A program made the position numbers and the translations under genes. Shown here one piece after another: positions 18,653 through 20,570 of a DNA stretch of 64,000 nt. Position 1 is the stretch's first letter. Every line of letters starts with the position of its first letter. The DNA comes from Lachnospiraceae bacterium (GTDB lineage: Bacteria; Bacillota; Clostridia; Lachnospirales; Lachnospiraceae), in NCBI GenBank assembly GCA_024684085.1, contig JAIKXM010000039.1, forward strand, positions 1-64,000, given 5' to 3'. The notes below the pieces were generated by a model that worked only from the letters and a program-made list of their open reading frames with translations, did not search any database and had not been told where the DNA came from.

Positions 18653-18742
18653 ATAAATACCTCCAATCCAGAAGCAATATTTACATGTACAATTATATCA
18701 AAAACGACCTATATTGGCAATTATCAGTAAATTACAAACAAT

Positions 18743-19417
18743 CTATAGTCGCTTTTTACTGATACCTTTAATAAATGTTTTCTTTAATTCGTTAGGTTTA
18801 TAGAAGAATTGTATTTCACTTTTGCTCAATCTGTTCTCTTCTCTTTTAATTTTTAGTAAGTCTATTGAACACAAGAAATCGGCAGCTTGTAATAAACGAT
18901 ACTTTTGTGGTTCAGCTTTTCTAAATTCAACATTTGATAGTTGAATGGAAAAAATAGCATTTAGAATTGATCCCAATTCTCGTTGACCATTATCATAGTA
19001 TACAATTACCTTATCAAAAGCATTCAGATAATCTATATGTTCAGTAATCATTTGGTTAATTGCCTTGCCTATCTTGCCTGATAATTGAACTCTGTCAATT
19101 GCTTCCTTCCTCTTTATTGATATAGTGCAAAAAACAATTGGACATTTCATAACAAAATTGAACATCTTATAAAGCAGTTGTCTTCTTTCGTCTAATGAAT
19201 AGTTTTCAAATATTCCCTCTTTTCTTATAACCGGACCTGTATGAATATACTCAATATCCCAACCTGATTCCTTTACACTATTCTCTAGTCTTTTGGTATT
19301 ATCTGAAATATCTTCATTTTGATCATGAAAAACAAAAGTGACAAGATAATAATCTCTAACATCTCTTGTTTCACCAAAATCTCCAGATTCATCTATAAAT
19401 ACACTTAATTCTTTCAT
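18743..19417 (-). CDS. DUF3800 domain-containing protein
   Basis: The 224-residue protein begins MKELSVFIDESGDFG, the acidic motif that defines DUF3800, which has an RNase H-like fold. A second acidic site is KVIVYYDNGQ (about 137), and YRLLQAADFLCSI (about 173) is the conserved C-terminal motif. The function is unknown; the family is common in mobile and defence-rich regions. The start is ATG 19417, with GGAG seven bases ahead; the track's longer form would translate through the hairpin leader. The gene is more AT-rich than its neighbours and has its own promoter and structured leader, which suggests a transferred unit. Confidence 0.85.
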   Translation of the reverse strand: MKELSVFIDESGDFGETRDVRDYYLVTFVFHDQNEDISDNTKRLENSVKESGWDIEYIHTGPVIRKEGIFENYSLDERRQLLYKMFNFVMKCPIVFCTISIKRKEAIDRVQLSGKIGKAINQMITEHIDYLNAFDKVIVYYDNGQRELGSILNAIFSIQLSNVEFRKAEPQKYRLLQAADFLCSIDLLKIKREENRLSKSEIQFFYKPNELKKTFIKGISKKRL

Positions 19418-19428
19418 TCTTCTGCTCC

Positions 19429-19488
19429 AAAAAAAAATGACGGGAAATTCTTCCCGTCTGCGGTGTTCCAAAGAGCTTTCGCCCAGAT
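19429..19488 (-). ncRNA. Structured leader/small RNA upstream of DUF3800, ending in an intrinsic terminator
   Basis: Minus-strand RNA of about 60 nt can fold as a compact junction: CUG/CAG closes two small hairpins, GGGC-GAAA-GCUC (GNRA tetraloop) and UGG-AACA-CCG (19458-19486). A strong hairpin GACGGGAAGAAUUUCCCGUC and nine U residues follow (19458-19429). The DUF3800 ribosome-binding site starts directly after the U-run. Published work describes several RNA motifs (DUF3800-I onward) found upstream of such genes; membership here is inferred. Confidence 0.6.
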
Positions 19489-19495
19489 CAATATT

Positions 19496-19524
19496 ATAAT
19501 ACCATATATTGGTCTATCTTTCAA
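19496..19524 (-). promoter_or_regulatory. Promoter of the DUF3800 leader RNA
   Basis: On the minus strand TTGAAA (19524-19519) and TATTAT (19501-19496) are 17 bp apart. Transcription would start about seven bases later, just at the 5' edge of the folded RNA. Confidence 0.65.
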
Positions 19525-19637
19525 TAATAATTTATTACATCCTATAATCCTTAATGCTTAAAAAGGCTAATAGAGTATTGAATATTAATTATGTCGTAAA
19601 GCATAATTAAATTAATTCAGCGAGAATAATAGAATTA

Positions 19638-20570
19638 TTATTTTGCTCTCAATACACTTAAGATCTTCTCAAAATACTCAGGTAGCGGTGCGACGGTCTC
19701 CACATATTCTCCCGATACAGGATGAATGAAGCCAAGCTTATATGCATGAAGGCACTGTCCTTCGGTCTTAAACGGACACTTGCGTGTTGAATATACATTA
19801 TCTCCGGCAAGCGGATGTCCTACAGAAGCCATATGAACTCTTATCTGATGAGTCCTTCCGGTCTCAAGCCTGCATTCGATATAGGTAAAATCATTGAATC
19901 TCTCAAGCACCTTGACATGAGTAATAGCACACTTTCCTTCATCAGGAGATACCACTGCCATCTTCTTTCTGTCATTTTTACTTCTGCCGATATTGATATC
20001 TATAGTCATCTCATCTTCAGATATGCGTCCGTGACAGATGGCTCTGTATGTTCTGTTAAGGCTGTGGCTTTTAAGTTGATCGGCTATGTTGTTGTGAGAC
20101 GCATCATTTTTGCAAGCGATAATGGAACCGGTCGTATCCATATCGATCCTATGGACAATACCGGGACGCAAGATTCCATTAATGCCCGAAAGACTGTCCT
20201 TGCAATGATACATGAGGGCATTGACCATGGTGTTGGTGTAATGACCGTTGGCGGGATGTACGACCATCCCCTTGGGCTTGTTGATCACTATCACGGAATC
20301 ATCCTCATACAGGATATCAAGAGGGATGTCCTCCGGCAGAATGTCGATCGGGGCAGCATCCGGAACGTCGAACTCTATACGATCGCCGACCTTTAATGAC
20401 AGTCCGGCCTTGGCTTTCTTATCATTGACCTTGACGGCATCTGATTTGATCAGTTTCTGAATATAAGATCTGGTAAGATCCAATTCCGATAATGAAGTTA
20501 TAGCTTTATCAAGACGTATACCGTCGTATTCCTCATCGATCAGGAAACTGTAATGCTCCATATGTACCAA
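19638..20570 (-). CDS. rluD: RluD-like pseudouridine synthase
   Basis: The 310-residue protein has an N-terminal S4 domain (about 15-75: RLDKAITSLSELDLTRSYIQKLI) and the RluA-family catalytic domain. The catalytic Asp is in VHRIDMDTTGSII (about 143), and the late motif is GRTHQIRVHMASVGHPLAGDNVY. RluD-type enzymes modify helix 69 of 23S rRNA. The gene follows lspA, the usual lspA-rluD order. The start is uncertain: TTG 20570 and ATG 20561 are both possible, with AAGG upstream. It is a paralogue of the synthase at 16947. Confidence 0.9.
   Translation of the reverse strand: MVHMEHYSFLIDEEYDGIRLDKAITSLSELDLTRSYIQKLIKSDAVKVNDKKAKAGLSLKVGDRIEFDVPDAAPIDILPEDIPLDILYEDDSVIVINKPKGMVVHPANGHYTNTMVNALMYHCKDSLSGINGILRPGIVHRIDMDTTGSIIACKNDASHNNIADQLKSHSLNRTYRAICHGRISEDEMTIDINIGRSKNDRKKMAVVSPDEGKCAITHVKVLERFNDFTYIECRLETGRTHQIRVHMASVGHPLAGDNVYSTRKCPFKTEGQCLHAYKLGFIHPVSGEYVETVAPLPEYFEKILSVLRAK

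What the first reader, a model, noticed from the sequence alone, without database searches (positions are those of the whole stretch)
19417..19524. Promoter - compact RNA - terminator - DUF3800 gene: a possible RNA-protein two-part system
A promoter with exact 17-bp spacing starts transcription at a roughly 60-nt RNA that can fold as a small junction with a GNRA hairpin and ends in a perfect terminator with nine U residues. The DUF3800 ribosome-binding site begins right after the U-run, so protein synthesis needs terminator read-through. The same promoter-RNA-terminator-protein order is used by type III toxin-antitoxin systems. Established knowledge: structured RNA motifs named DUF3800-I and onward have been reported upstream of DUF3800 genes. 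Whether this is one of them or a new class is open.
Basis: partly seen in the sequence, partly recalled or inferred. Interest (0 to 1): 0.75.

Follow-up and report, generated by a model that had tools for sequence, protein, structure and literature searches.

The report
DUF3800-XI RNA with its nuclease gene
This is a small structured RNA of a catalogued but unexplained kind (DUF3800-XI), made just in front of the gene for an RNase HII-like enzyme; the RNA is more strongly conserved than the enzyme gene and often remains after the gene is lost, which makes a toxin-antitoxin-like pairing plausible but unproven.

Summary
On the minus strand a promoter (TTGAAA-17-TATTAT), a 54-nt structured RNA, an 8-bp terminator with nine U, a ribosome-binding site and a DUF3800 gene follow each other. 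The RNA is not a new class: it is a divergent copy of Rfam DUF3800-XI (RF02975). It scores 31.0 bits against a cut-off of 37.8, with an A.A mismatch in the outer stem; homologous leaders in other Lachnospiraceae score 42-60. Covariation supports the stems. The RNA is 93% identical between homologues, against at most 83% for any 54-nt stretch of the gene. RNA-bearing DUF3800 proteins form one clade. The protein is predicted to be RNase HII-like, with invariant D9, E10, D142 and D180. The unit lies at unrelated chromosomal sites; ten sister species lack it at the window's site. The RNA often occurs without the gene or beside a broken gene, sometimes in tandem, and gene-less RNAs mostly keep their base pairing. 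I favour a dedicated RNA-nuclease pair in which the RNA restrains or controls the enzyme (type III toxin-antitoxin-like in layout, not a member). A purely cis-acting leader is less favoured. Nothing here shows toxicity, RNA binding or a discrete 60-nt transcript.

The parts
19496..19524 (-). promoter: -35 TTGAAA (19524-19519), 17-nt spacer, -10 TATTAT (19501-19496); predicted start at or next to the first base of P1
   Evidence: conserved 17-nt-spaced promoters in homologues
19437..19490 (-). DUF3800-XI-type RNA, conserved 54-nt core (Rfam match 19490-19443)
19464..19490 (-). bulged hairpin: P1 19490-19485/19469-19464 (A.A mismatch 19488/19466), P2 19484-19481/19476-19473, loop GAAA 19480-19477, bulge UUU 19472-19470
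19439..19458 (-). terminator hairpin (8 bp, loop GAAU); its sequence is conserved even where the U-tract is not
19429..19437 (-). U-tract, nine T
19425..19428 (-). ribosome-binding site GGAG, 7 nt before the ATG
18743..19417 (-). DUF3800 gene (224 aa), predicted RNase HII-like nuclease, D9, E10, D142, D180 invariant
18653..19637 (.). interval between rluD stop and cmk start that holds the unit; 39-119 bp in ten sister species

Best explanation
A self-contained two-part unit: a short structured RNA (DUF3800-XI type) and the gene of an RNase HII-like nuclease, driven by one promoter. Most transcripts should stop at the terminator and give the roughly 60-nt RNA; the few that read through give the mRNA of the protein. 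The RNA most likely binds its own DUF3800 protein and keeps it in check, or tunes it, in the way a type III antitoxin RNA does, and can be kept after the nuclease gene is lost. Shown here by comparison: homology to DUF3800-XI, conserved structure, promoter and order, association with one DUF3800 clade, intact catalytic residues, predicted RNase HII-like fold, presence at unrelated sites, many RNAs without the gene. Inferred: a discrete transcript, read-through expression, RNA-protein binding, nuclease activity, and the restraining role.
For: RNA identity: full-length RF02975 match, 31.0 bits, E 2.3e-5; leaders of homologues 41.7-59.6 bits, above the 37.8 cut-off. Structure. RNA identity 0.927 between homologues against at most 0.827 for any of 67 54-nt windows of the gene and 0.51 at third codon positions. 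Association: the RNA is upstream of homologues of the clade with readable upstream DNA; RNA-bearing proteins form one clade (support 96/98) and those with the window-type RNA a subclade (99/99), while the RNA-less DUF3800 proteins sampled fall outside. Protein: mean pLDDT 92.4; the best solved-structure matches are RNases HII, H2 and HIII, prob 0.99-1.00; invariant D9, E10, D142, D180. Gene lost, RNA kept: many orphan RNAs and decayed genes; in window-type orphans 16 of 22 changed pairs still pair (12 of 15 without the decaying L097), against 19% for random changes. Tandem RNAs. Patchy presence (R1 in 21 of 299 family genomes), unrelated flanks with ordinary genes, empty sites in sister species.
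Against: No toxicity, binding or transcript data. Orphans were found by searching for the RNA, so loss of the RNA before the gene would be under-counted on that side. Some pair-keeping changes in orphans may predate the loss of the gene. Some genomes have only gene-less RNA loci, so the RNA would have nothing to restrain there. The unit is not in PADLOC or PHROGs and almost absent from phages, plasmids and viral contigs, unlike many toxin-antitoxin systems. The U-tract is weak in many relatives.
Confidence: 0.5

Rival explanations
1. Cis-acting leader only: the hairpin and terminator form an attenuator by which the DUF3800 protein or another signal controls read-through into its own gene; the RNA does nothing in trans.
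For: Hairpin-terminator-RBS-gene order with no room for another promoter; the RNA precedes the intact genes of the clade; hairpin plus terminator resembles attenuator layouts.
Against: Gene-less copies keep promoter, stems and U-tract in many cases; tandem RNAs; no conserved anti-terminator pairing was noticed, though none was searched for systematically; Rfam types the family as an sRNA.
Confidence: 0.25
2. The RNA is an activating cofactor: RNA and RNase HII-like protein form an active ribonucleoprotein, for example in defence, rather than an inhibited pair.
For: RNase H-type fold with intact acidic residues; very strong RNA conservation; one actinobacterial relative lies near a BREX gene.
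Against: No variable or guide segment in the RNA; no PADLOC match; flanks of homologues are ordinary genes, not defence islands; an activator would not be expected to be kept when the enzyme is lost.
Confidence: 0.15
3. Small mobile element: the RNA and RNase H-fold protein move as a unit, and orphan or internally deleted copies are non-autonomous derivatives.
For: Unrelated flanks with sharp edges, empty sites, internally deleted genes, homology breaks at the edges of the RNA.
Against: No terminal repeats, target-site duplication or constant right end were seen; low copy number per genome; edges coincide with promoter and stop codon, as expected for a horizontally moved gene.
Confidence: 0.1

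Closest known systems
DUF3800-XI RNA, Rfam RF02975 (DUF3800 motifs of Weinberg et al. 2017; that paper is cited from memory, not held in the library)
   Same: Full-length match of P1, P2 and linker, upstream of a DUF3800 gene; leaders of close homologues exceed the Rfam cut-off.
   Different: Window copy is below the cut-off and has an A.A mismatch; window type has a CUCUUU stretch with a 3-nt bulge where the usual type has a 2-nt bulge; the Rfam model does not pair the terminator stem, which is conserved here.
Type III toxin-antitoxin systems (ToxIN, TenpIN, CptIN)
   Same: Promoter, short structured RNA, terminator, then gene of a putative ribonuclease.
   Different: Single RNA unit in this window (tandem pairs only in a few relatives), RNase HII-like rather than ToxN-like protein, no inhibition shown.
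RNase HII / RNase H2 / RNase HIII
   Same: Predicted fold; DExG motif and further aspartates.
   Different: About 10-16% identity, TM about 0.4-0.5, Pfam matches DUF3800 only.
TPR-DUF3800 proteins next to Cas12a2 (PMC10910872)
   Same: DUF3800 domain with predicted RNase H fold.
   Different: No Cas12, CRISPR array or TPR part seen here.

Membership tests
DUF3800-XI RNA (RF02975) | full-length alignment to the covariance model | tested here: met
   positions 1-48 of 48, E 2.3e-5 in a 301-base search
DUF3800-XI RNA (RF02975) | score above the curated cut-off of 37.8 bits | tested here: not met
   31.0 bits for the window copy; homologous leaders such as L033, 51 of 54 identical, score 43.4. Filed as a divergent homologue of members, not as a copy that passes the cut-off
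DUF3800-XI RNA (RF02975) | location upstream of a DUF3800 gene | tested here: met
   PF12686, 35.3 bits against 21
Type III toxin-antitoxin | promoter-RNA-terminator-gene order | tested here: met
Type III toxin-antitoxin | antitoxin RNA of tandem repeats | tested here: not met
   no direct repeats in 19380-19640
Type III toxin-antitoxin | toxin of the ToxN/AbiQ fold | tested here: not met
   RNase HII-like model; only DUF3800 in Pfam
Type III toxin-antitoxin | RNA binds, is cut by and inhibits the protein | not testable with these tools
   needs experiment
RNase HII | fold | tested here: met
   top PDB matches of the predicted model, prob 1.00
RNase HII | Pfam family match | tested here: not met
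   only PF12686
RNA-guided nucleases (OMEGA, IS110 bridge RNA) | variable guide or target-binding segment | tested here: not met
   RNA nearly invariant across species

The most novel reading that the evidence does not exclude
DUF3800-XI RNAs and their RNase HII-like partners are a separate class of RNA-controlled nuclease module (toxin-antitoxin-like, with a toxin fold that to my knowledge is not known from such systems), in which the RNA is maintained on its own, also in tandem, after loss of the nuclease; bulged-hairpin leaders before actinobacterial DUF3800 genes would be distant versions of the same arrangement.
Probability: 0.3. Interest if true: 0.8.

Novelty: new member of a known kind. 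Interest (0 to 1): 0.5.

Why it matters
I found no description of what the DUF3800-associated RNAs do in the papers that could be searched. The comparison gives testable predictions: the partner is an RNase HII-like nuclease, the RNA is under stronger constraint than the gene, and it is often kept when the gene decays. A knock-out, co-expression or binding test with this compact unit would decide between antitoxin, cofactor and attenuator.

Tried and rejected
Translated leader: an open frame starting at a TTG runs through the RNA into the gene, but RNA-to-ATG spacing is 18-32 nt with all three frames equally common, so it is not a coding extension. Phage or plasmid cargo: one partial phage match, one distant plasmid match, none in viral contigs, and no integrase among the commonest families of the flanking genes. 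Conserved downstream end: about 140 bp are shared in one clade of homologues only, so a transposon with fixed ends was not supported. Transfer of the R1 model to actinobacterial leaders: only 11.8 bits, E 0.13, at the right place in L074, and no Rfam match. Weak Rfam hits around 19550-19640 (CRISPR-DR53, nse_sRNA) were taken as chance.

Full report
What is there. On the minus strand the order is promoter (19524-19496), 54-nt RNA (19490-19437), nine-T run (19437-19429), GGAG (19428-19425) and the 224-aa DUF3800 gene (19417-18743). The scan scores alone are near chance for this A+T-rich DNA. The case rests on conservation.

Identity of the RNA. Against Rfam 15 the window gives no hit above gathering, but a focused search gives a full-length match to DUF3800-XI, RF02975, 31.0 bits, E 2.3e-5, with two non-standard pairs. 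The leaders of homologous genes in Butyrivibrio, Pseudobutyrivibrio and other Lachnospiraceae exceed the 37.8-bit cut-off in 12 of the 15 loci tested. The window copy differs from L033 (43.4 bits) at 3 of 54 positions, among them the A at 19466 that makes an A.A mismatch in P1. So this is a divergent copy of a known RNA family, not a new class.

Structure. In 25 distinct leaders the structure P1 (6 bp), P2 (4 bp), 3-nt bulge, 5-nt linker and 8-bp terminator stem has 99.6% of cells paired, five pairs with changes on both sides, and a covariation score that none of 500 shuffles reaches. Outside Butyrivibrio a further hairpin (AACTGTAA-CGAG-TTACAGTT in L038) sits between promoter and P1 and has changes on both sides at 6 of 7 pairs; a DNA operator would show the same pattern. 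The RNA core is 92.7% identical between homologues, against at most 82.7% for any 54-nt stretch of the coding sequence and 51% at third codon positions.

The protein. A 37-sequence alignment has D9, E10, D142 and D180 invariant. The AlphaFold2 model has mean pLDDT 92.4, and its best matches among solved structures are RNase HII, RNase H2 and RNase HIII (prob 0.99-1.00, TM about 0.4-0.5). An earlier paper predicted an RNase H fold with a catalytic rearrangement for a DUF3800 domain (PMC10910872). Active-site residues are therefore conserved, but activity is not shown.

Association. All homologous loci of the window's clade with enough upstream DNA carry the RNA (L135 of the sister clade read by eye). 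In a tree of 49 DUF3800 proteins the RNA-bearing ones form one clade (96/98), with window-type RNA in a subclade (99/99); the RNA-less DUF3800 proteins sampled lie outside. The Bifidobacterium protein L074 also falls in that clade on a long branch; it has an unclassified bulged hairpin rather than a recognised XI RNA.

Where it sits. Window and L032 are 87% identical from -118 to +667 around the ATG and unrelated outside. None of 43 homologous loci has the window's neighbour genes (the positive control worked). The genes flanking homologues are of mixed, ordinary families. In ten sister species rluD and cmk are separated by only 39-119 bp. The unit is thus most likely a horizontally acquired insertion in the window's lineage. 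Exact ends could not be fixed because the sister species are too diverged.

RNA without gene. The window's own genome has one intact DUF3800 gene but further RNA hits: two without the gene (L075, L076) and one before an internally deleted gene (L077). In the genus of G187, 22 of 29 genomes have XI RNAs; among the loci fetched, intact genes, decayed genes and gene-less RNAs all occur, gene-less ones slightly more often than intact ones by my reading. Some loci keep only the first codons of the gene. In gene-less window-type RNAs 16 of 22 changed pairs are still paired, or 12 of 15 without the decaying L097, against 19% for random changes. Part of this may predate gene loss, and RNA-based detection favours RNA-bearing loci. 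Tandem RNAs occur 58-59 nt apart in G609 and G595, and about 107-149 nt apart in L035, L036 and L045. Homology between related loci in several cases breaks at the edge of the RNA, which I cannot explain.

Mechanism. The layout lets one promoter make much RNA and little mRNA (inference). Together with the conserved nuclease residues, the close association, the strong constraint on the RNA and its survival without the gene, a restraining or controlling partner RNA is the reading I favour. A cis-only attenuator explains the layout but not the gene-less and tandem copies. An activating cofactor remains possible. Type III toxin-antitoxin membership fails on repeats and protein fold, although the unit may work in a similar way.

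Limits. The genome is an 85.7% complete assembly. Nothing here shows a transcript, binding, cleavage or toxicity. The 2017 description of DUF3800 RNAs was not in the held library and is cited from memory.

Noticed in passing
L077:284-807 (window genome, contig C2): A second DUF3800 gene with its own XI RNA and an internal deletion (model residues 1-25 joined to 99-223).
   Followed up: partly
L075:2922-2969 and L076:3979-4014 (window genome, contigs C39 and C31): XI RNAs without a DUF3800 gene; downstream of the one in L075 is an HTH/ATPase-like gene.
   Followed up: partly
L035:2724-2875 and L005:1501-1721: Skipping-rope RNAs (RF02924) lie directly upstream of XI RNAs; in L035 the XI RNA begins where the skipping-rope terminator would be expected.
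   Followed up: partly
L177/L178 and L005/L202/L006/L193/L204 around position 1501: Homology between loci starts or stops at the edge of the XI RNA, as if the RNA were a recombination or deletion boundary.
   Followed up: partly
L038:2890-2924 and equivalents: An extra covarying palindrome between promoter and P1 in non-Butyrivibrio loci; RNA hairpin or operator.
   Followed up: yes
L210:2925-3663 (Collinsella) and L074:2921-3675 (Bifidobacterium): Bulged hairpin plus terminator before DUF3800 genes of about 30% identity, with no Rfam match; the Collinsella gene is split and near brxL of a BREX system.
   Followed up: partly
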